Of a stretch of DNA of 64,000 bases, positions 8,065 to 37,715 are shown piece after piece (position 1 is the first letter of the stretch; every line of letters starts with the position of its first letter). The DNA is from Bifidobacterium platyrrhinorum (GTDB lineage Bacteria > Actinomycetota > Actinomycetes > Actinomycetales > Bifidobacteriaceae), in assembly GCF_010667645.1 (NCBI RefSeq), contig NZ_WHZV01000005.1:62001-126000 (forward strand). Direction: 5' to 3'. Under the pieces are notes generated by a model. The model was not told the DNA's origin. It ran no database searches and saw only the letters and a list, made by a program, of their open reading frames with translations. Made by a program: the position numbers and the translations under genes.

Positions 8065-11000
8065 ATGGCATTGTATTCCGCCGGCGAGGTCGGCGTCGAC
8101 GTCGTCCCCGACACCAGTGGGTTCTGGGCCATCCTCAACGCGGAACTCCACTCCCGCCATCCCGAAGTGCACGTGGACGTGGACACGCGGGACGTGGGCA
8201 AGGCGCAGGCCCAGCTCAACCATCTCGACGGGCAGACGCTCACCAGCACCATCAAGGTCGACGGCGACTATTCCGGCTTGCACAAGTACGTACAGCAGAT
8301 GGATGCCGCCGAAAAGCAGATGCGGCGCTTCCAGCAGCAGTCCCAGTCTGCCGCGAAGTTCGACGCCCGACCGTTCCTCGTCGGGTTGAAGAGCATGCAG
8401 GACGGTTGGGGCGCCGCCAACAAGCGGATGCGCGACGAGTGGGCGAAGACCCATGACTCGCTCGACATCAAAGCCCCGTCGAACAGGGTCGAAGCCCAGC
8501 TTGAAGCCATCGGATATAAGTATGCGGCCCTCGGTGAGAAGAACACCGCCTATCAGAAGACGTTAGACGATCTGACCTCGAAGCAATCAGAGCTGTGGGC
8601 AAAGACCCGTGCCGACATGGAACGGTTCGCGGCCGAACAGAAGAAACTGACCGACGAGCAGGTCGCCAATGAGAAACGTCTGGCCGAAGCCGTCACCCGC
8701 ACCAACAAGCAGCGTGGCGCGTGGGCTTCTCAGGCGACGCAGGCCCAGAAGCGTCTCGCCGAAGCCGAAAAGGAACTGGCCGCCGCCCAGGCGAAGGGCG
8801 ACAAGGACGCGGCGAAAGCCGCCGAAGAGCGTATCGCCACCGAGAAGGCGAGACTTCGTCAGTATGAGAAGAGCACGGACGCTGCCGTCAAATCGTTGCA
8901 GAAGGTGCAGCGTGAGACCCAGAAAACCTCTGCCGCGATAGACAAGAGCCTGGCGAAAATCCAGAAGAGCATGGATTCGACGGCGAAGAACGCTGAGAAG
9001 GCGTTGAAGCCGTTGAACGCGGGCGTGGAGAAAGCGGTCTCCGGCAATCTCGATCTGTTCAGGAAGGCTGGCGCGGAGTTCGTCAAGGAGATTCACGCGA
9101 CCGCCGAACAGACGCGCATGGCGTTCGACCATTCCGGCCCGCTCACGTTCCTCCATAATCTCCAATCCGCGTCCAATGATGCGGCCAAGGAGCTGAAGCA
9201 GCTACGCGAATCCGAATCGGAGACCGCACGCACGCAGTCCATGCTCGCCGAGGCGTTCGATGATACGACCAACGCGATGCGCGGCAACGCGAAAGCCCGC
9301 ACCGCAATGGGGAAAGCGTTCAGCAAATCCTCGTTGCGCGACAACGCGGCTCAGACCGCCGAGCTCACGAAACGCCTCGACGAACAGAACGGTGAACTTG
9401 ATTCGCTGATCGACCATTTCAAGAAGGCCAAGAAATACGGGCTCGGCTTGAGTGACGAGTTCGGCGACATGGGCAAGCGAATCAACGCGGCACGCGACCA
9501 TATCGCCGGATTGCGCAAACTCGCGGAACAATCCCCCATCAGGGCGAAGTTCTCCCTCGACACGCTCGGCTGGGATAAAACCTACGCAAAGGTTCTCTAC
9601 GACGCCAAATCCCTTGCGCGTGAGCTTGACCGCGAATATGAGCTGAAAATCCGCATCGACAGCTGGAAGGACGACGCGGAACGACTGGAGAAGCGTCTCG
9701 ACCAGTTGAAGCACCAGCGGCTTGATGTGCCGGTCGATTTCGAGATGGACGAGAAGCGCATCATCGAGCGGATGCGCGAGGTCGCCGCTGAAATCAAGGC
9801 GAACCCCGAGCGCGCCGTCGAACTGGAAGCGAACCTCGAGCTCGACATGAAGCGGGCCGAGGAGAAGCTGAAGAAGTTCCGGGAGAAGAACGACGAGCTC
9901 AAGATGGACCTCGATCTTGAGACCGCGTTGGCCCGCGCCCACCTCGCGTACTTCACGCGTCCGCGCACGGTGGACATCTTCGCGAACTTCAAGGGCACCG
10001 ACATGGGCAAGATCCTCGCCGGCATGTTCTCTGGTTCGACCGGTTTGAAGGGCGTGGAGAACCAGTTCCAGCGTCTCGTGAACCTCATGGATTCGTTGGA
10101 CACGAAGGTCCCGAAGTTCGCCCTGTGGGGCAGCGCGCTCATGGCGGTGGGTGCCGGCGCCACGAACCTGGCCGGTTCCATCGGCGGCGTGGGCAAGAGC
10201 CTCGTCAGCCTGTCGAAGGCCGCGTACGCGGCCCCCGCCGCGTTGGGCACGGTGGCCGCCGGATTCTACGGAATCTACGCGGCCGCGCAGGTCGCGGGCG
10301 ACCGGTTCAAACTCGCGAACACCGCATTGAAGGACCTCCAGTCCACGGTCGGCAACGCGTTCTGGGATGAGGCCACGGATGCGATCACCCGCATGTCGAA
10401 CACGTTGGGCGGCGATTTCGTCCGCAATCTCGCGGAAGTGTCCGCCGAGGAAGGCCGCATGGCCGCCGGCATGGCCGACATCATCACCCGGGCGAACGAG
10501 GCGGGCCGCATCAACGCGATGCTCGACCACGCGACCGACGCGGTACGCAACCTGCGGCCCGGCGTCGAAGCGGTCGTGGACTCGTTCACCTCGCTGGGCA
10601 GGGTCGGCGGACAGTACGTGCCCCAGTTGACGAACTGGATCAGCCAGAACCTGACCCATTTCGCCATGTGGGCCGCGGAGGTCGAATCCGACAACGCGCG
10701 CGTGGAATCCGCCATGCAGGGCGTGAAGGAACAGGCCGGGTATCTCGGCTCGTCCATCGGCTCCCTGAAGGGCATCTTCAGCGGCGTGTTCGGCACGCTC
10801 GCCCAATACGAGAACGGCATCCAAGGATTCAGCGAAGCGTTGGAGGCCGCCGACAAGGCCGTGAACAGCGTCCGGTTCCAGGATTCGCTGACCGCGTGGA
10901 TCGACGGCGCCCAGCGCGCGCAAAGCATCGTACGCAACTCGTTCTCCAGCATCGGCGAGGACGCGTATTCGCTTCGCAACGAGGTGTACAACGCGTTCGT

Positions 11001-14000
11001 GGGCGCGGGGCGTGTGGTCGGTTCCACGATGGAGAACATCAGCCAACTGCTTGCATCGAGCGGTGCGGGTATCCGTGATTTCACGGACGGCATCGCGTCC
11101 GGCTGGTCCCGGGCGATGGACGCCATCGGTGACAGTGGCCCAGTGTTCTCGGAACTGCTGTCGATGGTCGGCTCGCTGGCGGACACGTTCGGAGGCACGT
11201 TCGCCGCGTCGTTGAAGGCGGCAAGCCCGATGCTGCGCGTCATCGCTTCCGCCACGTCCTCGATCTCGGAGGCGTTCAACAGTCTGCCGGAACCGGTGAA
11301 GGCCGCTGCTGGCCTGTGGGTCACGTTCGGCCGTGCGGGAAAGACCGCGATCACGAGTCTGAAGACCGGCATGCTGCAGAACATCCAGCAGACGCTGCAG
11401 TACAAGTCGACAATGCAGCAGTTGGGCGTGACCACGAAGCAGACTGCCATAGGGTTCCGCGAACTCGTCGCGGCGATGGACAGTCTGCGTCGCGGGCAGG
11501 TGTCCGGCGCGCTGAGCGGCAGCATCACAGGTGTGAGACAGTTGGGCGACAGCGCCGAGGAGGCGACCGCCAAGGTGGAGGGCGTGGCGGCTGCGGGTCG
11601 TGAGGTGGAATCATCCACCACGGTCATCACGTCAAGTTCCCGCAAAGCCGCATCCGGCCTGAGCGAGGCTGGCGAGGCCGCGTCCAAGAACGCGGGCCGT
11701 CTGTCCGCCGTGGGCGGCGCGTTCAAGTCGGCCGGCTCGCTGGCGAAAAGCGCAGGCGGGCTGATAGTGGATGCATTCGGCGGACCGGCCGGATTGGCCG
11801 TCACCGCCGGCATGGCGCTCGTCACCACCGCGATCAGCGACTACAGCCTCAAGGCCCAATCCGCCGAAACCGCTTCGCAGAACGTGGCTGACGCGATGAA
11901 GAACATCGCCACGTCCGCGCAGGACACGGCGAGCTCGCTGGGCGTCGTAGGCAAGGCCATCAAGGAAAACCTTGAGGATCCGAACTTCGGCGAGGACGGG
12001 CTTCAGGGGTGGATGGCGTCCCATACGGGCGGGGCTCTCTACGGCCAGTTCAAGGATGCCGCATCCGCGGCGTCGAAACTGGGGCTCAGCCTGGACGACA
12101 TGGCGAAATCCGTGGCCGGCGGCAAAAACCAGTACGCGGCACTTACCAAGAAACTGCAACAGTACCGGAAGGAGGCCTTAAAGAACCGCGACGAGACCGG
12201 CAAATCCATCAAAATCGACAAGGAGAAGATGGATGCGGTCAACAAGGTCGCGGACGCCGCCAAGAAAGCCAACGATCAGGCCTTGGAGGAAGCCAAGACC
12301 ACGGCGAAGAACAACGGGTATACGGAAGCGTACGTGCAGAAACTGTACGACATGGGCGAAGGCTACGACCAGATCGCGGCCAAAACCCAGTCGGCAACGC
12401 AGAAGGCCGAAAACTACGCGACCAGCCTGAAACTCGCCGCCCAGAACCAGCAGAATCATTCCAACGCGTTGATCGCCGCACGTTCCGCCGGCTCCCTCTA
12501 CCAGAAGACGCTGGACGGCATGGGCGACACCATCAAGCAGGTGAACGCGCTTGCGGCGCAGGGCCAACAGGTGTGGGACGATCAGGCGAACGATTTCAAC
12601 CTGACGACCGAAGCCGGCCGGTTGGCGTCGGACGCGCTGGGCACGTTGGCAACGAACGCGAAAAGCTACGTGAACGCGATGATCGAATCCGGCGACTCGC
12701 TGGATGACGTGAACGCGAAGAACGACAAGATGCGCGAATCGTTCTACAACACGGCATTGCAGATGACCGGCAACGCCGATGCGGCGAAAGCGCTGACCGA
12801 CCAGTACATGATGACCCCATCCGAAGTGGAGACCACGTTCAAGGCCCACTTCGAGAACGCGAAACTGGAACTGCTCCAGTATCTCGCACTCATCCGGGAC
12901 ACGTTCCCGGACGGCAAGGGCGACGCCATCTACAACGCGATCGTGAACGCGATCACCAGTGGCGCGGTCACGGACATCACCGGCCTGCAGCAGCTCGTGC
13001 AGAAATACACGACCGGCAACTATCAGGCCGTGGTCACCGCCGACGGCACACAAGCCCTGTTGCAGATGTCGACCATCAACCAGTTGGGCATCGAATTCGA
13101 CGGCGAGAACTACAAGACCACGCTGAGCGCGGAGGACCTTGCGTCCCCGCGCATCGACGAGGTCGTGGCCGCATTGTCCGCAAGCGGATTGGATGGCAAG
13201 ACCATTCAGATGATCCTGCAAGCGCAAGGCGACGCGAAACTCACCATCGACCAGACGCAGGACTCGTTGACCAAGCTCGGCGCGTCCGCCGATGACATCA
13301 ACATCATCATCAACGGTCAGGATCATTCCAAGGCCGAGGTGGACGCCGCCATCGAGAACGTGTCCAAGCTGACCGGGTTGAGCAAGGACACGATCAGGTT
13401 CATGATCGAGGCGACCGATGGCGCGTCCAAACCGATGGAGGACATCCAAAGGAAGAAGGTACCGCTGGCGAAGGGCGCGTCATTCGACATCACCGCGAAC
13501 GACGACGAGGCCAGTGTGACGCTCGCATCCTACAAGGAAAAGGACGGTCAGACCATCGCCGAGTCGAAGGTGGCGATCACCGGAGACGACCAGGTGACGC
13601 CTGTCGCGGACTCCGCGAAGCAGGCGATATGGCTGATCCCGACCCAGTGGGGCACCCTGTTGGCCGCGTCCGGCGATACCGCCGATGTCGCCAACGCCGC
13701 GAACACGGCCGTGGTGGCGATTCCTCAGGAGTGGCTGTCTTCGATGTTCGGATATGACGGCACATCCGCGCCGGCGAAAAACGCGGACGGTTCCGTTAGG
13801 AACATTCCTCCGCAGTGGGACTCCCAGTTGCGCGGATTGGATAATACGTCCGCTCCGGCCAAGAACGCCGCCACCGCGGTCAAGAGCGTCCCGGAATCCC
13901 GGGAGTCCCGCATCGCCGCCAAGGTGAGTGGGCTTGATGCTGTGAAGTCCTTGTCTTCCGCAATCGGCGGTTTGGCTTCCAAGACCATCAGCATCGTGAC

Positions 14001-14475
14001 CAACTTCATCACGCACGGCTCGCCGTCGTCGGGCCATCTTGCCACCGGCGGTCGAATCCTCGGCCCGGGCACGGCTACGTCCGATTCGATTCCGGCGTGG
14101 TTGTCGAACGGTGAGATGGTGCTCAGGGCCAGTTCGGTTCGCAAGCTGGATGCGAAGTACGGTCGTTCGTTCCTGAACGCGTTGAACGCGTACGGCGACG
14201 TGGACAGGGCCTTGCGCCCGTCCGCGTTCGCGTTGAACGCGCGTCGTCGCAATCAGGCGTACGCGACCGGCGGCAGGGTCAAGGCCGGCGACATGTCCTG
14301 GAACATCGAGTTGAATCCGGTCGTCAAGGTCGAACTGCCCGATGATTCCAAGGGCACGCAGATCACGAACAATGTGAGCATCGACGGGGTGCGTGCTTCG
14401 GACCGTCAGATCGTGGACGCGGTGCAGACCGTGATCCAGGTGGCGGGGCGTACGCGCAACATGCGCGTCAGGTGA
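8065..14475 (+). CDS. Tape measure protein
   Basis: 2136 residues, the longest gene here; its length sets tail length, and it helps DNA pass through the membrane. Residues about 130-330 and 360-560 are long charged coiled coil (repeated K/E/A/Q, 'KRLAEAEKELAAAQAKGDKDAAKAAEE' style). A hydrophobic block at about 685-745 (GAGATNLAGSIGGVGKSL ... AAGFYGIYAAAQVAG) and a second at about 1230-1260 are typical membrane-active segments. The C-terminus has the usual actinophage ending 'HLATGGRILGPGTATSDSIPAWLSNGEMVLRAS'. Between about 1850 and 1960 there are imperfect repeats with 'TSAPAKNA' and 'P.QW'. No peptidase or muramidase domain was recognised. RBS GGGAGG is 8 bases upstream, right after a terminator. 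Confidence 0.92.
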   Translation: MALYSAGEVGVDVVPDTSGFWAILNAELHSRHPEVHVDVDTRDVGKAQAQLNHLDGQTLTSTIKVDGDYSGLHKYVQQMDAAEKQMRRFQQQSQSAAKFDARPFLVGLKSMQDGWGAANKRMRDEWAKTHDSLDIKAPSNRVEAQLEAIGYKYAALGEKNTAYQKTLDDLTSKQSELWAKTRADMERFAAEQKKLTDEQVANEKRLAEAVTRTNKQRGAWASQATQAQKRLAEAEKELAAAQAKGDKDAAKAAEERIATEKARLRQYEKSTDAAVKSLQKVQRETQKTSAAIDKSLAKIQKSMDSTAKNAEKALKPLNAGVEKAVSGNLDLFRKAGAEFVKEIHATAEQTRMAFDHSGPLTFLHNLQSASNDAAKELKQLRESESETARTQSMLAEAFDDTTNAMRGNAKARTAMGKAFSKSSLRDNAAQTAELTKRLDEQNGELDSLIDHFKKAKKYGLGLSDEFGDMGKRINAARDHIAGLRKLAEQSPIRAKFSLDTLGWDKTYAKVLYDAKSLARELDREYELKIRIDSWKDDAERLEKRLDQLKHQRLDVPVDFEMDEKRIIERMREVAAEIKANPERAVELEANLELDMKRAEEKLKKFREKNDELKMDLDLETALARAHLAYFTRPRTVDIFANFKGTDMGKILAGMFSGSTGLKGVENQFQRLVNLMDSLDTKVPKFALWGSALMAVGAGATNLAGSIGGVGKSLVSLSKAAYAAPAALGTVAAGFYGIYAAAQVAGDRFKLANTALKDLQSTVGNAFWDEATDAITRMSNTLGGDFVRNLAEVSAEEGRMAAGMADIITRANEAGRINAMLDHATDAVRNLRPGVEAVVDSFTSLGRVGGQYVPQLTNWISQNLTHFAMWAAEVESDNARVESAMQGVKEQAGYLGSSIGSLKGIFSGVFGTLAQYENGIQGFSEALEAADKAVNSVRFQDSLTAWIDGAQRAQSIVRNSFSSIGEDAYSLRNEVYNAFVGAGRVVGSTMENISQLLASSGAGIRDFTDGIASGWSRAMDAIGDSGPVFSELLSMVGSLADTFGGTFAASLKAASPMLRVIASATSSISEAFNSLPEPVKAAAGLWVTFGRAGKTAITSLKTGMLQNIQQTLQYKSTMQQLGVTTKQTAIGFRELVAAMDSLRRGQVSGALSGSITGVRQLGDSAEEATAKVEGVAAAGREVESSTTVITSSSRKAASGLSEAGEAASKNAGRLSAVGGAFKSAGSLAKSAGGLIVDAFGGPAGLAVTAGMALVTTAISDYSLKAQSAETASQNVADAMKNIATSAQDTASSLGVVGKAIKENLEDPNFGEDGLQGWMASHTGGALYGQFKDAASAASKLGLSLDDMAKSVAGGKNQYAALTKKLQQYRKEALKNRDETGKSIKIDKEKMDAVNKVADAAKKANDQALEEAKTTAKNNGYTEAYVQKLYDMGEGYDQIAAKTQSATQKAENYATSLKLAAQNQQNHSNALIAARSAGSLYQKTLDGMGDTIKQVNALAAQGQQVWDDQANDFNLTTEAGRLASDALGTLATNAKSYVNAMIESGDSLDDVNAKNDKMRESFYNTALQMTGNADAAKALTDQYMMTPSEVETTFKAHFENAKLELLQYLALIRDTFPDGKGDAIYNAIVNAITSGAVTDITGLQQLVQKYTTGNYQAVVTADGTQALLQMSTINQLGIEFDGENYKTTLSAEDLASPRIDEVVAALSASGLDGKTIQMILQAQGDAKLTIDQTQDSLTKLGASADDINIIINGQDHSKAEVDAAIENVSKLTGLSKDTIRFMIEATDGASKPMEDIQRKKVPLAKGASFDITANDDEASVTLASYKEKDGQTIAESKVAITGDDQVTPVADSAKQAIWLIPTQWGTLLAASGDTADVANAANTAVVAIPQEWLSSMFGYDGTSAPAKNADGSVRNIPPQWDSQLRGLDNTSAPAKNAATAVKSVPESRESRIAAKVSGLDAVKSLSSAIGGLASKTISIVTNFITHGSPSSGHLATGGRILGPGTATSDSIPAWLSNGEMVLRASSVRKLDAKYGRSFLNALNAYGDVDRALRPSAFALNARRRNQAYATGGRVKAGDMSWNIELNPVVKVELPDDSKGTQITNNVSIDGVRASDRQIVDAVQTVIQVAGRTRNMRVR

Positions 14476-19039: not shown

Positions 19040-19873
19040 ATGACGAATGTCAAATTCAGTGTGAAGAAGCCCGACGGGACCGCGGTCGAAGGCAAGCTCA
19101 CGTTCACGCCGGTCCGCCGCTATTTCAACACGGCGAAGGACCTGATCCTCCCGTATCCGCGTTCCGTCGACCTGGACGATAAGGGCGCGGCCACGGTGGA
19201 CCTTGCGGCCACGAACGCCCTGTTCGTGTGGGGTGTGACGGTCAGCCCGTCGGACGACGCGAACCTCGCGTGGACCCGGTACGTGGAAGTGCCGGAAAGC
19301 ACCACGGAGGTCGCCTACGCGGACCTTGTGGAAGTGGATGCGAACACGCTGCTGCCCTCGTCGATGAACGGCGTGCAGCCGGTGAAGATGCGTCCCCCGG
19401 TCGACTCCCTGGCCGCGGCCGAGGAGGAGAGCGCACGCTACCCGGATTACCTGGTCTGGTACCCGGAGGGCGCGACCGAAAGCAAGGCACGTGAAATGGT
19501 CACGTCCATCGAACAGTTGCAGGCCCAGGCCGCGACCAGTGCGGCCATGGTCACTGCCACGAAGGCGCAGGTCGCGTCCGATGCGAGCATCGTGTCCGAC
19601 GCGGCCGTGACCGCCGGCATGGTCAGCGAGCACGTGACCGCCACGAAGACCGAGATCGACGTGAAGAGCACGGAGGCCACGGCCGCTATCGACAAGGCCG
19701 TGCAGAGCGTGCAGGATCGCGCCCAGTCCGCGCAGAACGACATCACCGCCGTGGAGGACGAGACCAAGCCGGACACCGATACGCATGACGGCGGCGCCAC
19801 CGGCACGCAGACCGGTGACGGCGAGACCATCCCGTCGACGTCCGATGTTGACGGCGAACCGGCTGAGGAGTGA
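19040..19873 (+). CDS. Upper baseplate / fibre-base protein with coiled coil
   Basis: 277 residues. Residues 1-100 form a beta domain resembling transthyretin/Cna-B-like or baseplate-upper N-terminal domains ('VKKPDGTAVEGKLTFTPVRRYFNTAKDLILPYPRSVDLDDKG', with strands ending 'YVEVPEST'). Residues about 135-240 are an Ala/Thr/Glu-rich coiled coil (QLQAQAATSAAMVTATK and following), the shape of a trimeric stalk. The tail end is acidic and disordered (DTDTHDGGATGTQTGDGET). RBS AAGGAG 5 bases upstream. It probably anchors the receptor-binding proteins encoded next; only 3 bases lie between it and the Ig-like gene. It has no visible ligand-binding domain. Confidence 0.55.
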   Translation: MTNVKFSVKKPDGTAVEGKLTFTPVRRYFNTAKDLILPYPRSVDLDDKGAATVDLAATNALFVWGVTVSPSDDANLAWTRYVEVPESTTEVAYADLVEVDANTLLPSSMNGVQPVKMRPPVDSLAAAEEESARYPDYLVWYPEGATESKAREMVTSIEQLQAQAATSAAMVTATKAQVASDASIVSDAAVTAGMVSEHVTATKTEIDVKSTEATAAIDKAVQSVQDRAQSAQNDITAVEDETKPDTDTHDGGATGTQTGDGETIPSTSDVDGEPAEE

Positions 19874-19876
19874 CCT

Positions 19877-20581
19877 ATGGCTGTGTTCCTGAACGGCCAG
19901 CGCATGGCCAAACCATTAATGAACGGGGTGACATGGAACGCGCTCTACAACGGGCGCAAACTCTGGGCCACCCCCGCGGACACGGTCACCAAAATCGAGA
20001 TTCTCTCGACGGATGGCAAGCCGGCACCCACCACGTTGCCGGTCGATGGCACGGTCGCCTTGGCTGCGCGCGCCACGTACGCGGACGGCCACCAATCCGA
20101 CCTGCTGACCGACCGGGGTGTGACGTGGGCGAGCCTGGACACGAGCGTGGCGACCATGTCGGGCAACACCGTCACGTGGAAGCACGGCGGCACGGCGTTG
20201 ATCACGGCACGGGTGGCGGGGTTCACGTCCGCCGCCCTGTCGATTGCGGCCGCGTACGCGCCGGAATCCGTCAGCGTATCGGATGACGCGGGCAAGCCCG
20301 TGGGCTCGGTGACCCTTCGCGCGGGCGAATCCATGAATTTGCAGGTGAAAATCCTGCCCATGGAAGCGTCGCAGGAGTTCACCGCCGCCAGCGGGGACGG
20401 GACGGTGGCCGTGGTGGGCGACGCGAAACCGACCGGCATCACGGTGTCGCCGGAGCCGGTGACATTGCGCGTGGGCGAAACCACGACCCTCGACGTGAAC
20501 ATCCTGCCCGCGTACGCGCCACAGGAATTCACCGCGGACATCGAGGACAAGACCATCGCAACCATCAACAGCAAGGAGTAA
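19877..20581 (+). CDS. Ig-like (BIG2) tail protein ending in mid-domain
   Basis: 234 residues. Residues 1-38 are an unusual head ('FLNGQRMAKPLMNGVTWNALYNGRKLWA') that may dock onto the tail. Then come one full BIG2-type domain (about 40-130, 'TLPVDGTVALAARATYADG...TVTWKHGGTALITARVAGF') and BIG2-like material to the end (VSVSDDAGKPVGSVTLRAGESMNLQVKILP; ITVSPEPVTLRVGETTTLDVNILP). The last residues 'DKTIATINSKE' are the first half of a BIG2 domain; the second half ('VAVTGLVPGETSLKLTADNG') is encoded after the stop, in the cassettes. The final codons AAG GAG also form the RBS for the next ATG five bases on, so the two are coupled. In phages BIG2 domains usually present adhesins or bind surface sugars. 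Confidence 0.7.
   Translation: MAVFLNGQRMAKPLMNGVTWNALYNGRKLWATPADTVTKIEILSTDGKPAPTTLPVDGTVALAARATYADGHQSDLLTDRGVTWASLDTSVATMSGNTVTWKHGGTALITARVAGFTSAALSIAAAYAPESVSVSDDAGKPVGSVTLRAGESMNLQVKILPMEASQEFTAASGDGTVAVVGDAKPTGITVSPEPVTLRVGETTTLDVNILPAYAPQEFTADIEDKTIATINSKE
20573..20578 (+). promoter_or_regulatory. Shared RBS for cassette 1, two possible starts
   Basis: AAGGAG is 5 bases before ATG 20584 (out of frame with the cassette body at ten G) and 9 bases before GTG 20588 (in frame at ten G). It lies inside the last two codons of the upstream tail gene. Confidence 0.6.
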
Positions 20582-20583
20582 TC

Positions 20584-21142
20584 ATGAGTGAATCTTTTAG
20601 GGGGGGGGGTGGCCGTAACCGGCCTCGTCCCGGGTGAGACGAGTCTGAAGCTCACGGCCGATAATGGTGTCGCGAAATCGGTGCCCGTCATCGTGCGGGA
20701 GAACCTGCTCAAGGACTGGCCGACAGCCACGTTCACCGCGGCCTCCGACAGCACGGGAATCCTGCCGTCGTACACGATCGCCGGCAACGTCATGACCATC
20801 ACTGGCAAGACCGGTGCCGCCGACCAGCGGGTCACCGCGCGCGTGAACCTGCCAGCCGGATTCGGCAGCAAGGTCACGGTCGGATTGGATTACACGGGGC
20901 CCGAGCTGACGGCGGACTCGACGCTCACACCCAACCTGATGACGGTCATCTCCGTAGGCGACCAGTACAAGCCCGTCGCCACGCTCCCGCTGCCCGAAAA
21001 GGTCACGCCCGGCCACTACCGGCTCGACGCGGTCCTGCTGACCGGAGCCACGCAGGTCGAAATGCGCATCGGCGTGTTCACCACCACGCCGTTCACCGTG
21101 ACACGCCTGGCCATCATGAAGACCAGCGAATACATCGAATAA
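20584..21142 (+). CDS. Receptor-binding cassette 1, poly-G phase-variable (OFF from its ATG)
   Basis: From ATG 20584 the leader reads M-S-E-S-F-R and enters ten G (20600-20609), after which this frame ends at TGA 20635. The long frame is shifted by +1 and runs to TAA 21140-21142. With nine G the product would be 185 residues: leader, second half of a BIG2 domain (VAVTGLVPGETSLKLTADNG), then a beta-sandwich module (ENLLKDWPTATFTAASDSTG ... VTRLAIMKTSEYIE) resembling carbohydrate-binding-type domains. A GTG at 20588 is already in the long frame at ten G (M-N-L-L-G-G-G), with a usable RBS spacing, so weak expression without slippage is possible for this cassette alone. A terminator follows. Confidence 0.65.
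20600..20609 (+). repeat. Poly-G tract 1 (10 G)
   Basis: Ten consecutive G immediately after the leader codons of cassette 1. One fewer G (or two more) would join the ATG to the long frame. Such tracts are prone to replication slippage. Confidence 0.9.
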
Positions 21143-21145
21143 GCA

Positions 21146-21180
21146 AGCCCCATACGGGGCTTTCATCATAAGGAGGCCCC
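21146..21180 (+). promoter_or_regulatory. Terminator overlapping an alternative RBS-masking hairpin (cassette 1/2)
   Basis: AGCCCC (21146-21151) and GGGGCT (21156-21161) form a short terminator with a T-rich tail. The same GGGGC could instead pair with GCCCC at 21176-21180, enclosing the AAGGAGG ribosome binding site (21170-21176) of cassette 2. The two pairings exclude each other. The same layout recurs at the cassette 2/3 boundary. Confidence 0.5.
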
Positions 21181-21183
21181 AAT

Positions 21184-21640
21184 ATGGGCGAAGCATTCAG
21201 GGGGGGGGGCTAGCGTCCGCGCCCTCAAGGAGGGCGACACCCTCGTCACCATCACCGCGGGCGCGCTGACGAAGACCATCCCGGTCAGCGTGTGGGGGAA
21301 CAAATGGGCGTTGCCCGCCCTGCCCGCCACGGTCAACGGCATCGAATTCACCGACATGGGCGACGGGCGCGTGCATGCGAAGGGCACGTCGACCGGGTGG
21401 GCGACCGTCCGCACCACCATGGCCCTGCCGGCCGGCGAGTACACGCTCGAACACACGCATGGCAGCGGCGACAGTCTGTTTTGCGAACTCAAATCCACTG
21501 ACGGCGCGGTCGACCTGTTCAGCCATTCCAGCGCGAACAGGGCGACGATCCCGGCGGGCGACTATCAGATGATCGTCAGCGTCCCGCCCTCCAAGACCGT
21601 CGACCAGACCATCACCCCCATCCTCAGGAAACTCAACTAA
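21184..21640 (+). CDS. Receptor-binding cassette 2, poly-G phase-variable (OFF)
   Basis: ATG 21184 (RBS AAGGAGG, 7 bases) reads M-G-E-A-F-R-G-G-G and then TAG at 21211 because the tract has ten G (21200-21209). The long frame is open at +1 and ends at 21640; with nine G it gives 151 residues: half BIG2 domain (ASVRALKEGDTLVTITAGAL), then a beta-rich module 'LPATVNGIEFTDMGDGRVHAKGTSTGWATV ... QTITPILRKLN'. This 'n-G-x-x-x-x-x-x-G-x-h-x-G-T' pattern recurs in cassettes 3 and 4 and in tail proteins of other Gram-positive phages. No in-frame ATG, GTG or TTG exists between the previous stop and the body until GTG 21290, so at ten G this cassette should be silent or truncated. Confidence 0.65.
21200..21209 (+). 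repeat. Poly-G tract 2 (10 G)
   Basis: Ten consecutive G followed by CTAG, so that the ATG frame meets TAG straight after the tract. Same phase error as tracts 1 and 4. Confidence 0.9.
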
Positions 21641-21675
21641 AGCCCCGATTGGGGCTTTCTTCATAAGGAGGCCCC
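21641..21675 (+). promoter_or_regulatory. Terminator overlapping an alternative RBS-masking hairpin (cassette 2/3)
   Basis: AGCCCC-GATT-GGGGCTTTCTT directly after the cassette 2 stop. GGGGC (21651-21655) could alternatively pair with GCCCC (21671-21675), enclosing the AAGGAGG of cassette 3 (21665-21671). It is nearly the same element as at 21146-21180, including the downstream bases up to ATGGGCG. Confidence 0.5.
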
Positions 21676-21678
21676 AAT

Positions 21679-22539
21679 ATGGGCGCGTTATCAATCACCG
21701 GCAAAACCATCGGCTCCACCAGCCTCAACCTCAAAACCGGCGCCATCACCAAAACCATCCCCGTCACCGTGAAATCCACAAACCTCCTGTCGTACGGGCC
21801 CGCCGAAGCCAACAATCTCAAGGCCACGGTCGCCGCGGACGGGTCGCTCGATTTGACCTCGACCGGGGACATGGAAGTCGGCAAGGGCGTCCAGTGGGAG
21901 CTCGACATGAGCATGCTCATCGGCAGGACCGTGACACTGTCCTACGAAGGCAGCGTCCCGTCGGCCATGATCGCGTCCGTCCGCAAGGCGGACACGACCG
22001 GCGGCGCGGGCGTCTACCAAGGCAAGAACAACCAGTCGTTCACCGTGGACGCGAGCATGAAGACCCTGATCTTGCGCGTCTACAAAGGAGGCAGCGCCGC
22101 CGGCCCCGTATCCGGCAACCTCAGGATCACACTCAACGAGGGTGCGACCGCATTGCCGTGGATGCGGCCCGATAACACCGGCCTCGCGGGGGGGGGATTT
22201 GAGTTAGCGAACCTGTGGCCCGTATTCCAGGCCGGGGCGAGCAACGGCGTGACCCTCACACCCGACACCAACGGCTCGTACACGCTCACGGGCACCCCCT
22301 CGGCATGGACCGCGTGGACCCAACCCATCACCCTCACCCCGGGCGTGTACCTCATGCTCCCCGGCGTCACGGGCACGGGCGCCACCGCGGCCGTCTACAA
22401 CGGCGACCCGGGCACAAGCCAACCGGTCACGGGCCGGTTCGAGGTCACCGAGACCGGTGAATGGACCGCGCGCATCTACACCGAAGAGCCCGGCAGCACG
22501 GTCGACGCGACCCTCCACCCGCGCCTCATCCGATCCTGA
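21679..22539 (+). CDS. Receptor-binding cassette 3, two modules, open (ON)
   Basis: 286 residues, the only cassette readable from its ATG through to its stop. Its 5' leader matches cassette 2 up to ATGGGCG, but the bases coding E-A-F-R and the G tract are missing, so the start leads directly into half a BIG2 domain (ALSITGKTIGSTSLNLKTGA, then ITKTIPVTV). Module one (about 35-165) is a beta-sandwich ('NNLKATVAADGSLDLTSTGDMEVGKG', 'LRVYKGGSAAGPVSGNLRITL'). A linker of three glycines encoded by nine G joins module two (about 172-286, 'NLWPVFQAGASNGVTLTPDT', 'VDATLHPRLIRS'), which resembles the modules of cassettes 2 and 4. RBS AAGGAGG, 7 bases. It is probably the receptor-binding protein made in the sequenced clone. 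Confidence 0.7.
   Translation: MGALSITGKTIGSTSLNLKTGAITKTIPVTVKSTNLLSYGPAEANNLKATVAADGSLDLTSTGDMEVGKGVQWELDMSMLIGRTVTLSYEGSVPSAMIASVRKADTTGGAGVYQGKNNQSFTVDASMKTLILRVYKGGSAAGPVSGNLRITLNEGATALPWMRPDNTGLAGGGFELANLWPVFQAGASNGVTLTPDTNGSYTLTGTPSAWTAWTQPITLTPGVYLMLPGVTGTGATAAVYNGDPGTSQPVTGRFEVTETGEWTARIYTEEPGSTVDATLHPRLIRS
22188..22196 (+). repeat. Poly-G tract 3 (9 G, in frame, between two modules)
   Basis: Nine G code the glycine linker of cassette 3 and keep the frame. The next bases ATTTGAGTTAG carry a stop in each other frame: a gain of one G reaches TGA and a loss of one reaches TAG, within three codons. Slippage would therefore cut the second module off cleanly. Confidence 0.9.
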
Positions 22540-22567
22540 CCATATCCAACCCATGAAGGAGAAAACC

Positions 22568-23042
22568 ATGTCCGAAACATTTAGGGGGGGGGGTCGCGGT
22601 TTCCGCGCTCACTCCCGGCACCACCCACCTGACCATCACCACGGGCGGTGTCGTTAAGACCATCCCCGTCACCATCTACCCGGCCGGCGTGTTCCCCATC
22701 CTCGATTCCATGCTGCCGAAGACCATAAACGGCGTCGTCTACACGACGGGCCCCACGCCGGGAAGCATCCACGCCACGGGCACGGTGACGGACTGGGGCG
22801 GGGTCAACCAGACCATCCAGTTGGAGGCCGGCGAATACTCGTTCGCCGGCACCAGCTCCGGCGACGTGAAGAACCTGTACGCGCAGGCCATACTGCCGGA
22901 CGGCACGACCGTGAACACCAGCAACGGGGATCAGGTCTCCTTCACGCTCACCGAGCCCGCGACGGTCACGCTCAGCGTGGTCGCCCGCAACGGCACCACC
23001 GTCGACGCGGACATCACACCCATCCTCACCAAAACCAAGTAA
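22568..23042 (+). CDS. Receptor-binding cassette 4, poly-G phase-variable (OFF)
   Basis: ATG 22568 (RBS AAGGAG, 6 bases) reads M-S-E-T-F-R into ten G (22584-22593) and then a spurious His/Arg-rich tail to TAA 22657. The long frame is at +1 and runs to 23042; nine G would give 157 residues: half BIG2 domain (VAVSALTPGTTHLTITTGGV, then VKTIPVTI), then a module 'LPKTINGVVYTTGPTPGSIH ... ITPILTKTK' clearly related to that of cassette 2. No in-frame start was found between the ATG and the tract. Unlike cassettes 1 and 2 there is no terminator between cassettes 3 and 4, so both lie on one transcript. The next gene follows after 10 bases. Confidence 0.65.
22584..22593 (+). repeat. Poly-G tract 4 (10 G)
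   Basis: Ten consecutive G after the leader M-S-E-T-F-R of cassette 4. Same length and same phase error as tracts 1 and 2. Confidence 0.9.
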
Positions 23043-23219: not shown

Positions 23220-23254
23220 AAGCCCCACGGCCTCTTGCAGGCGTGGGGCTTTTT
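23220..23254 (+). terminator. Intrinsic terminator before endolysin
   Basis: AAGCCCCACG pairs with CGTGGGGCTT across a 12-base loop and runs into five T. It closes the receptor-binding and small membrane protein transcript. Confidence 0.85.
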
Positions 23255-23275
23255 CATACCCGAAAGGACCTTGAT

Positions 23276-24337
23276 ATGGCTGATTTCGTCAATCTCCAGC
23301 CCGACGAATACAAGCTCCTCAACACGCATTACAGCGCTGGACGCGAGGGTCGCACGATCAACAAGATCGTCGTGCACCACAACGCCGGCAACCTGAGCAT
23401 CCAGGGTTGCTGGAACGTGTGGCAGACCCGTCAGGCGTCCGCCCACTATCAGGTGGACGCCAACGGTCGCATCGGCCAGCTCGTCAACGATTGGGATACC
23501 GCATGGCATGCGGGCGACTGGGAGGCGAACCTCACGTCCATCGCTATCGAACATGCGGACATCAACAGCAGTCCGTGGGCGGTTTCGGATGCGACGCTCG
23601 AATCGGGCGCGCATCTCGTGGCCGCGCTCTGCCGCTACTACGGGCTTGGTCGTCCGACGTGGATGGTGAACGTGTTCCCTCATTCCGCGTTTTCGTCCAC
23701 GTCGTGCCCCGCGTCGCTCGCCGGCTCGCAGAACGCCGCCTACATGAAGCGCGCTCAGGAATGGTATGACGCGATGGCATCCGGCACGCAGCCGGGGCCG
23801 GCGCCGTCCGGCACCGCCCAGGGTGGCGGCGAACAGCATGAGAGCGAGGACAACGGCACCCCGGCCCGTACGCTCACCACGCACGTGCACTATGCTCTCC
23901 GTGTCCTGAACGGCGACTGGTGGCCCGACGTGACCGACTTCGGCAAGAACGCGGACGGTTACGCGGGCGCGCCCATGACCCAGCATGATCTCCTCGTCGC
24001 ATGGGTCGACAAAGGGCAGCTCCGCTATCGTACGCACAACCTCAACGGCGATTGGAACGACTGGGTGTCGAAGGCCGACAAGAACGATACGGTCAACGGT
24101 TGCGCCGGCATCCCCGGCGTGCCGATCGACGGCGTGCAGATGTATTACACGACGCCGGACGGTATGACCATGTCGCAGGTGTACTACCGTTCCCAGACCG
24201 CCGACCGTGAGGGTTGGCTGCCGGTCTGCTGCGACGACGGCTCCACGTACGACGCGTACGACGGTTGGGCCGGTATCCTCGGCGAACCCCTCGACCGTCT
24301 CCAGCTCGCCATTTCCGACGGCAACCCGTTCGCCTGA
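23276..24337 (+). CDS. Endolysin: N-acetylmuramoyl-L-alanine amidase with C-terminal wall-binding repeats
   Basis: 353 residues from ATG 23276 (RBS GAAAGGA, 7 bases); an in-frame GTG upstream lies inside the terminator and is unlikely. The first 160 residues form an Amidase_2/PGRP domain that cleaves the bond between MurNAc and L-Ala: 'NKIVVHHNAG' (zinc His), 'SAHYQVDANGRIGQLV', 'TAWHAGDW', and 'HSAFSSTSCP', where the His and Cys complete the zinc site. After a Gly/Pro/Ser linker (about 175-200), the C-terminal part has imperfect repeats with 'YRTHNLNGDWNDWV', 'AGIPGVPIDGVQMYY' and 'YRSQTADREGW', resembling clostridial hydrophobic-W (ChW) wall-binding repeats. No signal peptide, so export needs a holin. 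Confidence 0.9.
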   Translation: MADFVNLQPDEYKLLNTHYSAGREGRTINKIVVHHNAGNLSIQGCWNVWQTRQASAHYQVDANGRIGQLVNDWDTAWHAGDWEANLTSIAIEHADINSSPWAVSDATLESGAHLVAALCRYYGLGRPTWMVNVFPHSAFSSTSCPASLAGSQNAAYMKRAQEWYDAMASGTQPGPAPSGTAQGGGEQHESEDNGTPARTLTTHVHYALRVLNGDWWPDVTDFGKNADGYAGAPMTQHDLLVAWVDKGQLRYRTHNLNGDWNDWVSKADKNDTVNGCAGIPGVPIDGVQMYYTTPDGMTMSQVYYRSQTADREGWLPVCCDDGSTYDAYDGWAGILGEPLDRLQLAISDGNPFA

Positions 24338-32457: not shown

Positions 32458-34500
32458 GTGTCCGTTTTTTCCACGTTGAAGCAGCAAACCACGAACATCA
32501 CGCGCAAGGCGTTGCGCCTCGGCACCGATTTCGTGCATCCGGTCGGTGACGACGCGGGCAACGAACCCGACTACGCCGGCGAGGACATCGCCCGCGAGGA
32601 GTCCATCGAGCTGCCCCACACCGACGTGTGGGGGCCGGACCGTCCGACGGTCACCGAGATCGACCCGGCTTCGGGGCTGCTGACCACCACCACGCAGGGA
32701 AATCCCCCGCTGGACATGGGCATGTCGATCTACGACATCTACGCCGACCGCGCCGAACGCATGGGCGACGACCCGCTGTACACGTACAAGGAGGACGGCG
32801 AGTGGGTCACGAAGACCGCGAACGAGTTCCTCGCCGAGGTGCGCGAGATCGCCAAGGGCCTGCTGCACTACGGCCTGAAGAAGGGCGACGGCGTGGCGTT
32901 CATGTGCCGCACCTCCTATGAGTGGGATCTGACCGACGCGGCCGTCATGGCCTGCGGCGGCGTGCTGGCCACCATCTACGACACGGATTCCGCCGAGCAG
33001 ATCCGCAACATCGTCAACAACTCCGACGCCCGCTTGCTCATCGTGCAGGACACCGCCATGCGCGACAAGGCCGACGGCGCCGTCGAGGAATGCCCGTCAC
33101 TGGAGCACATCGTCTGCATCGAGACCGGCGGCCTGGACGAGATCAAGGCGTACGGCAAGTCCGTGTCCGACGAGGAGCTGGACGAGCGCATCGACTCGGT
33201 GCGGAAGACCGACCTGTGCTCGATCGTGTACACGTCCGGTTCCACCGCCGCGCCGAAGGGCGTGGAGATGACGCACGAGCACTACTGCCAGACGGCGTTG
33301 AACCTGCCCGATTACATGCCGGACCTGCTGCATGACAAGAAGAACACGATCCTGCTGTTCCTGCCCCAGGCGCATTCGTTCGCGCGCGCCATCAACTACA
33401 TCGTCGTCGCCTCGAACGTCCATATCTACATCGCGACCGGCATCAGGACGCTGATCTCCGACCTGCAGGTCGCCAAGCCGTCCATCATGATCGTCGTGCC
33501 CCGCGTGCTGGAGAAGGTGTACAACGCCGCCTCCCAGAAGGCCGGACACGGCGCAAAGGGCATGGTGTTCGCCTCCGCGGTCGTCGCCGCGCAGGACTAC
33601 ATGAAGGAGATCTCCGAAAAGGGCCATGCGGGCGCCCTGGCGCGCACCAAGCGCGCCGCGTTCGACCCGGTGGTCTACAAGTCGCTGCGCGAGGTGCTGG
33701 GAGGCCGCGCCAAGTGGATCGTCGCGGGCGGCGCCCCGCTCGACCCGGAGCTGATGGCGTTCTTCCGCGGCGCCGGCGTGCCCGTGTACGAGGGCTACGG
33801 CCTGACCGAGACGACCGCCCCGTGCGCGTTCAACGTGCTGGGCGTCCCGTTCCACGCCGGTTCGGTCGGCATCGCGTTCCCCGGCTTCTCGCTGCGCATC
33901 GCCGAGGACGGCGAGATCCAGGTCAAGGGCCGCGCCGTGTTCCCCCGCTACCACAAGAACGAGGAGGCCACCGAGACCTCCTTCACCGAGGACGGCTGGT
34001 ACGCGACCGGCGACCTGGGCCGCATCGACAACGACGGATTCCTGTACATCACCGGCCGCAAGAAGGACCTCATCATCACGGCCGGCGGCAAGAACGTGGC
34101 GCCCGGACCGATCGAGGAGGTCATCCAGCGTTGCGAGATCGTCTCGCAGGCGCTGGTGCTGGGCGACAAGCGTCCGTTCATCTCCGCGCTCATCACCCTG
34201 GACGAGGAGTCGCTGCGCCCGTGGCTGGCCGCGAAGGGTCTGGACGAGCATATGACGATGGAGGAGGCCGCGAACAACGCCGCGGTGCGCGCCGAGGTGC
34301 AGAAGTGGGTCGACCAGGCCAACGAGGGCGTCTCCCGCGCCGAGTCGGTCCGCAAGTTCATCATCCTGCCCGAGGAGTTCACGCAGGAGAACGGCCTGAT
34401 GACCGCGTCGATGAAGGTCATCCGCCCGAAGGTCATCAAGCGCTACGCGACGCTGCTCGCCACGCAGATGTACACGAAGAAGACCGCGCCGCGCCAGTGA
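32458..34500 (+). CDS. Long-chain fatty acid-CoA ligase (AMP-binding), copy 1
   Basis: 680 residues starting at GTG 32458 (RBS AAGGAG, 6 bases; an upstream in-frame TTG contains that RBS within its codons and is rejected). Activates long fatty acids to acyl-CoA through acyl-AMP. Motifs: P-loop 'IVYTSGSTAAPKGVEMTH' (about residue 263), 'LPQAHSFARAINY', 'GYGLTETTAPCAF', 'DGWYATGDLGRIDNDGFLYITGRKKDLIITAGGKNVAP'. It has an N-terminal extension of about 90 residues, rich in acidic residues, before the start of the adenylation domain, longer than in copy 2. Convergent with copy 2, with a hairpin between them. Bifidobacteria carry such FAA1-type enzymes for lipid recycling; exact substrate unknown. 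Confidence 0.9.
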   Translation: MSVFSTLKQQTTNITRKALRLGTDFVHPVGDDAGNEPDYAGEDIAREESIELPHTDVWGPDRPTVTEIDPASGLLTTTTQGNPPLDMGMSIYDIYADRAERMGDDPLYTYKEDGEWVTKTANEFLAEVREIAKGLLHYGLKKGDGVAFMCRTSYEWDLTDAAVMACGGVLATIYDTDSAEQIRNIVNNSDARLLIVQDTAMRDKADGAVEECPSLEHIVCIETGGLDEIKAYGKSVSDEELDERIDSVRKTDLCSIVYTSGSTAAPKGVEMTHEHYCQTALNLPDYMPDLLHDKKNTILLFLPQAHSFARAINYIVVASNVHIYIATGIRTLISDLQVAKPSIMIVVPRVLEKVYNAASQKAGHGAKGMVFASAVVAAQDYMKEISEKGHAGALARTKRAAFDPVVYKSLREVLGGRAKWIVAGGAPLDPELMAFFRGAGVPVYEGYGLTETTAPCAFNVLGVPFHAGSVGIAFPGFSLRIAEDGEIQVKGRAVFPRYHKNEEATETSFTEDGWYATGDLGRIDNDGFLYITGRKKDLIITAGGKNVAPGPIEEVIQRCEIVSQALVLGDKRPFISALITLDEESLRPWLAAKGLDEHMTMEEAANNAAVRAEVQKWVDQANEGVSRAESVRKFIILPEEFTQENGLMTASMKVIRPKVIKRYATLLATQMYTKKTAPRQ

Positions 34501-34504
34501 GGCG

Positions 34505-34524
34505 AAGTGGCGGTCCGCCACTTT
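34505..34524. terminator. Hairpin between convergent acyl-CoA ligase genes
   Basis: AAGTGGCGG / CGCCACTTT with a very short loop, right after the copy 1 stop; usable by either strand. Confidence 0.55.
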
Positions 34525-34559
34525 CCGATGCCGTATGCCTGGGACGCCCGGTTCCGGAT

Positions 34560-37111: not shown

Positions 37112-37277
37112 CGGTGGCTCCTTCGCCGTCGCGTCCGTCCCGGCGCATCCGTCGGGCTTCCCCTCCCACGATGACGGGGATGCGACGCCTTTGTCCATTC
37201 GTACGGATGATGTGTACAGAGGTCGCGGAAATCTTCACAAAACGAAAAACCCCGCTCCATGGCGGGTTTCCGGATGG

Positions 37278-37350
37278 AGCGGACAACGGGACTCGAACCC
37301 GCGGTCTCAACCTTGGCAAGGTTGCGCTTTACCAACTAAGCTATGTCCGC
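37278..37350 (-). tRNA. tRNA-Gly (GCC), copy 1
   Basis: 73-base cloverleaf, 7-bp acceptor stem GCGGACA/TGTCCGC, anticodon loop TTGCCAA with GCC, T arm GGGTTCGAATCCC. CCA not encoded. Identical to the copy at 37716-37788. Confidence 0.97.
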
Positions 37351-37383
37351 GTAGGATTCCCGCCGTGAGAAGCGGGATTCCAG

Positions 37384-37456
37384 TGGGCGATGTAGGAATC
37401 GAACCTACGACCCCTTCGGTGTGAACGAAGTGCGCTAGCCGCTGCGCCAATCGCCC
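37384..37456 (-). tRNA. tRNA-Val (CAC)
   Basis: Acceptor GGGCGAT/ATCGCCC, anticodon stem CTTCG/CGAAG with loop TTCACAC giving CAC, T arm TAGGTTCGATTCCTA. Confidence 0.95.
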
Positions 37457-37502
37457 GAAATCAATCGGTGTTCAGTTATCGGCCGAATCGCTTCGACCAT
37501 GG

Positions 37503-37574
37503 TGGGCGATACAAGATTCGAACTTGTGACCCCTTCCGTGTCAGGGAAGTGCGCTACCTCTGCGCCAACCGCCC
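37503..37574 (-). tRNA. tRNA-Val (GAC)
   Basis: Acceptor GGGCGGT pairing with ATCGCCC (one G-T and one mismatch-like position), anticodon stem CTTCC/GGAAG with loop CTGACAC giving GAC, T arm CAAGTTCGAATCTTG. Confidence 0.95.
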
Positions 37575-37616
37575 GGGCCTGCATTACAGTCAATCGAATC
37601 GCTTCGATCCGCTGAG

Positions 37617-37687: not shown

Positions 37688-37715
37688 GTAAGGTCGTCAA
37701 CTCGTCGGACCTTAG

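What the first reader, a model, noticed from the sequence alone, without database searches (positions are those of the whole stretch)
20584..23042. A bank of receptor-binding cassettes with poly-G switches in a Bifidobacterium-type prophage
Three cassettes (starts 20584, 21184, 22568) share a leader M-S/G-E-x-F-R and a run of exactly ten G, after which the ATG is out of frame with a long conserved body. In all three, one G less would open the gene. Each body starts with half a BIG2 domain and then a different ligand-binding-type module. A fourth cassette is open. Seen directly: tract lengths, frames, shared leader. Established: homopolymeric G tracts cause slipped-strand ON/OFF switching (phase variation), and bifidobacterial pilin genes are reported to use them. 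Inference: the prophage uses tract slippage to vary which receptor-binding modules are made, so a lysogen population would release phages with different host range. DNA-inversion shufflons of tail genes are known in bifidobacterial prophages as I recall; a G-tract bank of this kind I do not know.
Basis: partly seen in the sequence, partly recalled or inferred. Interest (0 to 1): 0.92.

Follow-up and report, generated by a model that had tools for sequence, protein, structure and literature searches.

The report
Phage tail modules behind G-run switches
A Bifidobacterium prophage carries a row of tail-protein modules set behind runs of nine or ten Gs, run lengths differ between closely related copies of these modules, and the phage therefore likely flips which modules its particles carry.

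Summary
Three cassettes share a leader (MSESFR, MGEAFR, MSETFR) and a G10 run that puts the start codon out of frame with a long body; the fourth is open but has a G9 run between two modules. A second, otherwise dissimilar phage contig of the same genome shares this 3.1-kb bank at 88% identity, with run lengths 9/10/11/10 against 10/10/9/10. Relatives carry coding-strand runs of 8-13 G at the same kinds of place; 19 of 48 usable sites are in frame, and at 14 of 16 usable linker sites both other frames stop within five codons, against 83 of 7024 control positions. This is the anatomy of a contingency locus in phage tail modules. Slippage in a population and host range were not tested.

The upstream anchor ends inside an Ig-like domain and cassette starts resemble the missing half, so modules may plug in non-covalently; a frameshift fusion is not excluded. 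Shufflon-type sites lie near the bank in the second contig and in 3 of 8 IMG/VR relatives, so it may add to the receptor-binding protein. Ten paper searches showed no such bank.

The parts
8065..14475 (+). tape measure protein gene (context)
   Evidence: phrog_305 E 6e-40
19040..19873 (+). gene of the phrog_28754 family (unknown function) in front of the anchor; its counterpart on the second contig matches at 66% DNA identity
19877..20581 (+). anchor gene: one complete Ig-like domain, then two first-half Big_2 units; the protein ends inside the second of these
   Evidence: Big_2 E 2.3e-16, best stretch profile 3-49/79; model; C-terminus at about the same place in 113 of 120 listed homologues (my count)
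20573..20578 (+). Shine-Dalgarno AAGGAG of cassette 1
   Evidence: sequence
20584..20609 (+). cassette 1 leader and G10 run (run 20600-20609), out of frame with its body
   Evidence: the second-copy counterpart has G9 and is in frame
20609..21142 (+). cassette 1 body
   Evidence: open frame; phrog_35081 E 3.2e-5 over its start only; dN/dS 0.58 against the second copy
21145..21190 (+). inter-cassette element: hairpin arms that can pair with the SD of cassette 2
   Evidence: 46 bp, 89% identical to 21640-21685; fold z -4.76, SD unpaired probability at most 0.01
21184..21209 (+). cassette 2 leader and G10 run (21200-21209), out of frame
21209..21640 (+). cassette 2 body
   Evidence: phrog_35108 E 1.4e-41 for 21290-21640; dN/dS 0.59
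21640..21685 (+). second inter-cassette element in front of cassette 3
21679..22539 (+). cassette 3, open: half-Ig-like start, module A, G-run linker, module B
   Evidence: phrog_35081 E 6.3e-49 and phrog_35108 E 1.9e-5; 512 homologues at E 1e-3 or better; model
22188..22196 (+). G9 linker run inside cassette 3, in frame here
   Evidence: G11 and out of frame in the second copy
22568..22593 (+). cassette 4 leader and G10 run (22584-22593), out of frame
22593..23042 (+). cassette 4 body
   Evidence: phrog_35108 E 6.5e-16 for 22596-23042; dN/dS 0.58 for its first part
23243..24337 (+). endolysin (context, downstream end of the bank)
   Evidence: Amidase_2 E 4.5e-23; phrog_3393 E 7.7e-72

Best explanation
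The locus is a bank of tail-protein modules in a Bifidobacterium prophage whose reading frames are open or closed according to the length of G runs, and replication slippage at those runs likely switches each module on and off. Shown: three runs sit behind short leaders with their own ribosome-binding motifs, one lies between two modules of an open gene, and run lengths differ between related copies. Inferred: the host polymerase slips at these runs during growth, as measured for bifidobacterial pilus genes; a lysogen population would then hold cells, and after induction particles, with different sets of modules on a common anchor protein. Predicted from fold: the modules bind carbohydrate on a host cell or in mucus. 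In the assembled state cassette 3 with both modules is the one in frame; cassettes 1, 2 and 4 are out of frame.
For: Observation and whole-genome uniqueness. Second copy of the bank with run lengths 9/10/11/10 against 10/10/9/10, in a contig with little other DNA similarity. Seven IMG/VR contigs with one matching leader: 10, 10, 9 (plus one base in the leader), 11, 10, 9, 9; eight with the matching linker: 9, 11, 10, 13, 11, 10, 9, 8; pairwise DNA identity of the seven leader regions 86-97%. Two genomes with identical 45-base upstream flanks and G9 against G10 (L243, L244). In 15 tail regions (199,757 bases) G9+ occurs 18 times on the coding strand and once on the other; shuffles mean 1.32, maximum 5. 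19 of 48 usable sites in frame. Both other frames close within five codons at 14 of 16 usable linker sites, against 83 of 7024 positions in the bodies behind all the runs. Of the 120 cassette-3 homologues listed (of 512), 20 end within a few residues after the linker and 100 continue into module B. Body-frame dN/dS below 1, and lower than in either other frame, for six of six segments compared. GGG is 37 of 377 glycine codons in nine phage genes, so G9-10 is not ordinary codon use. Slippage at bifidobacterial G runs is measured: G11 about 37%, G12 about 60% at bbr_0113 (PMC9187656, passages). Fold neighbours of cassette 3 include a CBM22 tandem (first in the PDB list) and phage tail fibres, CBM_CenC-type and receptor-binding proteins.
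Against: No reads were available, so mixed lengths inside one culture are not shown, and assemblies can misjudge G runs. dN/dS behind the runs (0.58-0.61) is higher than for the ungated anchor and module A (0.25, 0.24; Fisher p 9e-4): intermittent expression or diversification, but also relaxed constraint. Cassette 4 of the second copy carries a further one-base deletion, L208 has an extra base in its leader, and L250 has its linker run interrupted after seven G, so some members look decayed or locked. Four of 13 same-genus regions have no coding-strand run of 8 or more (L190, L191, L195, L201), nor have the relatives L158 (none of 7 or more) and L230. At the IMG/VR linkers bases next to the run change too, so length alone does not set the frame there. 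Cassette 1 has an in-frame GTG start at G10. Only 5 of 21 leader sites have both other frames closed within five codons. The fold lists also hold unrelated proteins (a monooxygenase, insecticidal proteins, seed storage proteins), and whole-model TM-scores are low (0.13-0.39 on the query).
Confidence: 0.75

Rival explanations
1. The bank is switchable but the modules are adhesion decorations (mucus or glycan binding) rather than the receptor-binding protein; host range is set by another tail gene.
For: The second contig has a Rin-like shufflon with its own variable tail gene next to the bank; that gene's best PHROGs are of unknown function, and calling it receptor-binding rests on its place in a Rin-like locus. 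Rin-type sites also occur in 3 of 8 IMG/VR relatives that carry the runs (L038, L208, L213; the other five are held over 4-6 kb only, so absence there says little). The cassette 3 model resembles carbohydrate-binding folds among others. Ig-like domains on phages are known for mucus binding (recalled, not looked up).
Against: The window itself has no Rin-type site, nor have the 13 same-genus regions, so here the bank might be the main variable tip.
Confidence: 0.5
2. The out-of-frame cassettes are silent spare parts: the G run plus the shared half-Ig seam is a place for recombination between modules and between phages, not an expression switch.
For: Two otherwise dissimilar phage contigs of one genome share this bank; cassettes share short stretches at 74-89% identity with each other; run and seam coincide; cassette 4 of the second copy is decayed.
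Against: Every cassette has its own SD and start codon. Natural in-frame copies of the same leader-run-body type exist (second-copy cassette 1, L189, L213, L214). Other frames are closed right behind most linker runs. Linker runs inside a gene are not needed for such a seam. Both roles can hold together.
Confidence: 0.12
3. The runs or the junctions act at the RNA level: RNA polymerase slippage or ribosomal frameshifting makes a fixed fraction of full-length or anchor-fused product, with no heritable switch.
For: Runs of this length can also slip in transcription (general knowledge, not tested here). The cassette start is in the -1 frame of the anchor in 10 of 11 junctions, and in these 10 that frame is open for 9-157 codons upstream, so a -1 frameshift could fuse anchor and cassette; only 6 of the 11 junction sequences are distinct.
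Against: Lengths differ between matching sites, which a fixed programmed site would resist. In the second copy of this very bank the start is in frame 0 and the frame is open for only 2 codons upstream, and an XXXYYYZ slippery heptamer lies in the last 33 anchor codons in 1 of 11 junctions.
Confidence: 0.12
4. Run lengths are assembly or sequencing errors and every cassette is really in frame.
For: G runs are hard to sequence; the B. breve reference length at bbr_0113 was not the commonest one in culture (PMC9187656, passages).
Against: Runs recur at matching places in many assemblies with lengths 8-13; both other frames are closed at most linker sites; truncated and full-length forms recur among 120 listed protein clusters. 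Errors would not place long G runs, nearly all on one strand, at module borders.
Confidence: 0.05

Closest known systems
G-tract ON/OFF switch of sortase-dependent pili in Bifidobacterium (Penno et al. 2022, PMC9187656; passages seen)
   Same: Same genus, same kind of run (G10-12 in the passages seen), run between two open frames near the gene start, length sets the frame.
   Different: Pilus genes of the host; here phage tail genes, four runs in 2.5 kb, several modules side by side, and a second class of run between modules. The words 'phage' and 'prophage' do not occur in its main text.
Rin shufflon of bifidobacterial prophages (Mavrich et al. 2018, PMC6109161; passages seen)
   Same: Varies a tail protein's C-terminal part in Bifidobacterium prophages; a Rin-like locus lies next to the bank on the second contig.
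   Different: DNA inversion by a tyrosine recombinase at 11-bp sites; the window has no such site, and the bank shows no recombinase of its own. The main text has no occurrence of 'homopolymer', 'G-tract' or 'frameshift'.
Likely diversity-generating retroelement beside tail genes in bifidobacterial prophages (PMC8705816; passages seen)
   Same: Tail diversification in prophages of the same genus.
   Different: Works through a reverse transcriptase; I did not search the window for one.
Simple-sequence contingency loci (Haemophilus, Neisseria, Campylobacter, Mycoplasma; as introduced in PMC9187656)
   Same: Slippage at short repeats shifts the frame or expression of surface genes.
   Different: Those are bacterial surface genes; here the genes are phage tail modules next to an anchor that ends in half an Ig domain.

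Membership tests
Slipped-strand contingency locus | simple repeat in the coding frame such that length sets the frame | tested here: met
Slipped-strand contingency locus | repeat length differs between otherwise near-identical copies | tested here: met
Slipped-strand contingency locus | out-of-frame state gives an early stop | tested here: met
   both other frames within five codons at 14 of 16 usable linker sites; at leader sites in 5 of 21, later in the others
Slipped-strand contingency locus | mixed lengths within a clonal culture, reversible | not testable with these tools
Slipped-strand contingency locus | phenotype follows length | not testable with these tools
   needs bench work
Rin inversion shufflon | TTCCCTAACCC-like inverted sites | tested here: not met
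   none in the window; five in the second contig
Rin inversion shufflon | tyrosine recombinase next to the variable genes | tested here: not met
   on the window's contig the two Phage_integrase matches lie at C5 25268 and 148583, more than 50 kb from the bank
Diversity-generating retroelement | reverse transcriptase and template/variable repeat pair | not tested
   no search for a reverse transcriptase was made
Bifidobacterial G-tract pilus cluster | sortase-anchored pilin genes | tested here: not met
   Pfam scan of the anchor and cassettes shows Big_2 and hits below cut-off only, no cell-wall anchor domain; neighbours are tail, lysis and head genes

The most novel reading that the evidence does not exclude
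A plug-and-socket tail: the anchor protein carries orphan first halves of Ig domains as sockets, each cassette starts with the missing second half as plug, and G-run slippage decides which plugs exist in a given cell. A phage particle would thus be assembled by non-covalent completion of a split Ig domain, with the combination of binding modules drawn anew by slippage in each lineage.
Probability: 0.27. Interest if true: 0.92.

Novelty: new variant of a known kind. Interest (0 to 1): 0.78.

Why it matters
The ways known to me for phages to vary their tail tips are DNA inversion and retroelement mutagenesis; this bank would be another, needing no enzyme of its own, only the host polymerase and a G run. 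Related runs occur in two genera of the host's family, in some cases near an inversion shufflon, and could help explain why bifidophages are hard to plaque: a given particle may lack the module that its host needs (inference). The split Ig seam makes a testable claim on how modular tail parts are joined.

Tried and rejected
Tried: near-identity DNA search of the tail region in 50,697 phage records, no match; tblastn of cassette 3 and of the 117-residue end of cassette 4 there, no match; protein search with cassette 4 found one protein only, whose contig has the window contig's length; viral-contig searches with cassette 4 and cassette 3 gave one and no relative, so I went on with DNA patterns. 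The five hits (L202-L206) have other contexts and were not used. The scan of named genomes gave three loci in two Bifidobacterium species.

Weighed: ribosomal frameshift fusing anchor and cassette. I first set this aside on the two copies alone (offset 2 against 0). Rechecking shows offset 2 in 10 of 11 junctions with the leader frame open upstream, but a slippery heptamer in only 1 of 11 and none in the window. So it is kept as a rival; its odds went from 0.08 to 0.12 and those of the plug-and-socket case from 0.30 to 0.27. Rejected: chance G runs. A sigma-70-type promoter scan of the bank found none.

Rows dropped: I left out loci that repeat a genome already in the list (L207, L210, L215, L241, L246-L249), judged by identical run flanks or contig length. 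From its 49 rows I dropped L211:4996, cut by the locus end, which leaves 48 sites and 16 linkers. The 11 sites of type 'other' take the longest open upstream frame as theirs, which may be wrong for a few. 113 of 120 anchors is my reading: 115 end 30-39 residues after the last RVGE-like motif, and two of these (P0234, P0238) run past the half-domain; the 120 are the listed part of 242 and include the window's own and the second copy's anchor.

Literature: ten searches, judged by titles and starts of abstracts, listed no paper on G-run switching of tail genes; only open-licence PMC papers were searched.
Full report
What is there. The window holds head, tail and lysis genes of a tailed phage: portal, protease, head decoration, major head protein, tape measure, tail protein, endolysin and holin. 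The host genome groups with Bifidobacterium: one same-genus genome, G104, has a contig of the same length (252,812) as the Bifidobacterium reuteri DSM 23975 contig found by name. Between the tail genes and the endolysin lie an anchor gene (19877-20581) and four cassettes. Cassettes 1, 2 and 4 have an SD, an ATG, a six-codon leader (MSESFR, MGEAFR, MSETFR), a G10 run and a body of about 143-177 codons that is out of frame with the ATG. Cassette 3 has no run behind its start and is open, but a G9 run lies between its two modules. These four account for every G run of eight or more in the 64 kb.

A natural experiment in the same genome. The leader pattern finds six places in the genome: three here and three in contig C12. 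C12 holds other tail genes (tape measure, Dit, minor tail protein). Apart from a 66% match over the preceding gene, a 98-base patch and a 97-base repeat match inside the anchor, its DNA similarity to the window is the bank: 88% over 3,145 aligned bases. In it cassette 1 has G9 and is in frame, cassette 2 has G10 and is out of frame, the linker of cassette 3 has G11 and is out of frame, and cassette 4 has G10 with a changed flank and a further one-base deletion downstream. Around run 1 the flanks are identical over more than 15 bases on each side, and only the run length differs.

Relatives. The module families phrog_35108 and phrog_35081 occur in 12 and 13 of 112 same-genus genomes, the window's own included, and phrog_35108 in 17 of 189 of the family, in 2 of 16 genera. 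Control genomes ring in 0 of 14 for phrog_35108 and in 1 of 14 for phrog_35081. In 15 tail regions (the window, C12 and the 13 regions behind the phrog_35108 hits; 199,757 bases), runs of nine or more G occur 18 times on the coding strand and once on the other; dinucleotide shuffles give a mean of 1.3 and a maximum of 5. Eleven of the 15 regions have a coding-strand run of eight or more; four (L190, L191, L195, L201) have none, nor have L158 and L230. The runs sit at two main kinds of place: behind a short leader in front of the body, and between two modules after a W-M-R/K-P-D motif. A third, rarer place is inside the Ig-like domain itself (L192, L200, L216). In seven IMG/VR contigs that share one leader site the lengths are 10, 10, 9, 11, 10, 9, 9, and at the matching linker in eight contigs 9, 11, 10, 13, 11, 10, 9, 8. 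L208 (the third leader value) also has an extra base in its leader, and at the linkers bases next to the run vary as well. Two genomes with identical 45-base upstream flanks have G9 and G10 (L243, L244). One relative, L250, has the linker run broken after seven G.

Frames. Of 49 sites (27 sources) one is cut by the locus end; of the remaining 48, 19 are in frame and 29 are not, not far from what random lengths would give. At linker sites both other frames are closed within five codons in 14 of 16 usable cases, against 83 of 7024 other positions in the bodies behind all the runs; the sites are related by descent, so this is not a count of independent events. At leader sites this holds in 5 of 21 only. 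Of the 120 listed homologues of cassette 3 (of 512), 20 end within a few residues after the linker, eight with the same read-out (LRGGAVN), and 100 run on into module B; one of the 20 is the second copy itself. So open and closed forms of the same gene recur among protein clusters.

Selection. Between the two copies dN/dS in the body frame is 0.58 (cassette 1), 0.59 (cassette 2), 0.61 (module B) and 0.58 (first part of cassette 4), against 0.25 for the anchor and 0.24 for module A, which no run gates; in each of the six segments the body frame has the lowest ratio of the three frames and no stop. Gated modules thus evolve faster (Fisher p 9e-4) yet stay open: in keeping with part-time expression or diversification, but relaxed constraint is not excluded. 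GGG makes up 37 of 377 glycine codons in nine phage genes of the window, so the runs are not ordinary codon choice.

The split Ig seam. The anchor matches Big_2 and its last unit stops at profile position 49-50 of 79. About the same end point recurs in 113 of 120 listed homologues (my count). The cassette starts look like the second half by eye (VAVTGLVPGETSLKLTADNG...). Pfam does not call Big_2 on these short pieces; three of four give weak hits to the ends of other families and one gives none. In L192 the run lies inside one protein in which Pfam finds Big_2 from position 4 to 78 of 79 across the run, which supports that the two sides belong to one domain. The best model of the anchor shows strands of a complete Ig-like unit (residues about 37-126) followed by two units with two strands each at pLDDT mostly 67-83 (mean 77.8, pTM 0.44); the other four models were poorer, at 59.6-65.8. 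In the model of cassette 3 the start (residues 1-38) and the linker are mostly below 50 in pLDDT, module B is mostly 80-95 and module A near 70. This fits an incomplete domain waiting for a partner, but low confidence alone proves nothing. Both models are monomers; no two-chain prediction was made. The frame relation of anchor stop and cassette start is -1 (offset 2) in 10 of 11 junctions, and there the leader frame is open for 9-157 codons upstream, so a frameshift fusion is possible in principle; against it, the second copy has offset 0 with only 2 open codons, and a slippery XXXYYYZ heptamer is found in 1 of 11 junctions, not in the window.

What the modules may bind. The cassette 3 model matches a CBM22 tandem first in the PDB (E 6.6e-5), followed by a mixed list (a monooxygenase, insecticidal proteins, seed storage proteins), and in the viral library phage tail fibres, a CBM_CenC-type protein and receptor-binding proteins (best E 1.4e-9; the module-sized match A0A8S5QH97, uncharacterised, at rmsd 1.8 over 111 columns). 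Carbohydrate binding is a prediction. In C12 a 297-residue tyrosine recombinase and five TTCGCTAACCC sites, one base off the published Rin site TTCCCTAACCC, adjoin a variable tail gene directly upstream of the bank. That gene's best PHROGs are of unknown function; naming it receptor-binding follows its place in a Rin-like locus. L038 and L213 have four such sites each and L208 one, of 8 IMG/VR relatives with the runs; the window and the 13 same-genus regions have none. So where a Rin-like locus can be recognised, the bank is an addition to it.

A second layer. The 46-bp elements in front of cassettes 2 and 3 fold so that the SD is buried (unpaired probability at most 0.07 in four of four copies; z -4.76 and -5.16 for the window pair). 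Folds that leave the SD free cost about 8-12 kcal/mol. Whether this couples one cassette's translation to the next is open.

Verdict. The anatomy of a multi-run contingency locus in phage tail modules is solid; heritable switching in culture, the joining mechanism and the ligand are inferred. Neither the ten literature searches (listings) nor the passages seen in PMC9187656, PMC6109161 and PMC8705816 describe it.

Noticed in passing
L009:3651-6809 (G000:C12): Rin-like inversion shufflon: tyrosine recombinase, five TTCGCTAACCC sites (one +, four -) and a variable tail gene, directly upstream of the second copy of the bank; two tail-diversifying systems side by side.
   Followed up: partly
window 21145-21190 and 21640-21685: Repeated 46-bp element that buries the SD of the next cassette in a very stable hairpin, with a competing fold that frees it; possible translational control.
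   Followed up: partly
window 19877-20581: The anchor contains two consecutive first-half Big_2 units without second halves (by eye three in relatives such as P0128), so there could be several sockets per anchor.
   Followed up: partly
L250:3200-3240 (-): A relative's linker run is interrupted (seven G, then A), which may lock the switch.
   Followed up: no
window 33474-35568: About 2.1 kb that matches its own reverse complement at 65% (self-comparison): a large imperfect palindrome, perhaps two related genes facing each other.
   Followed up: no
window 37275-37788: Cluster of five tRNA genes with a 74-base stretch of tRNA-Gly(gcc) present twice at 100% identity.
   Followed up: no
L007:1501-1524: Another same-genus genome (G008) has a start codon, four or five codons and a G10 run, perhaps a different gene behind a G-run switch.
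   Followed up: no
L192:3996-5363: Natural one-chain version: G9 run inside an intact Big_2 followed by a large C-terminal part without a Pfam match.
   Followed up: partly
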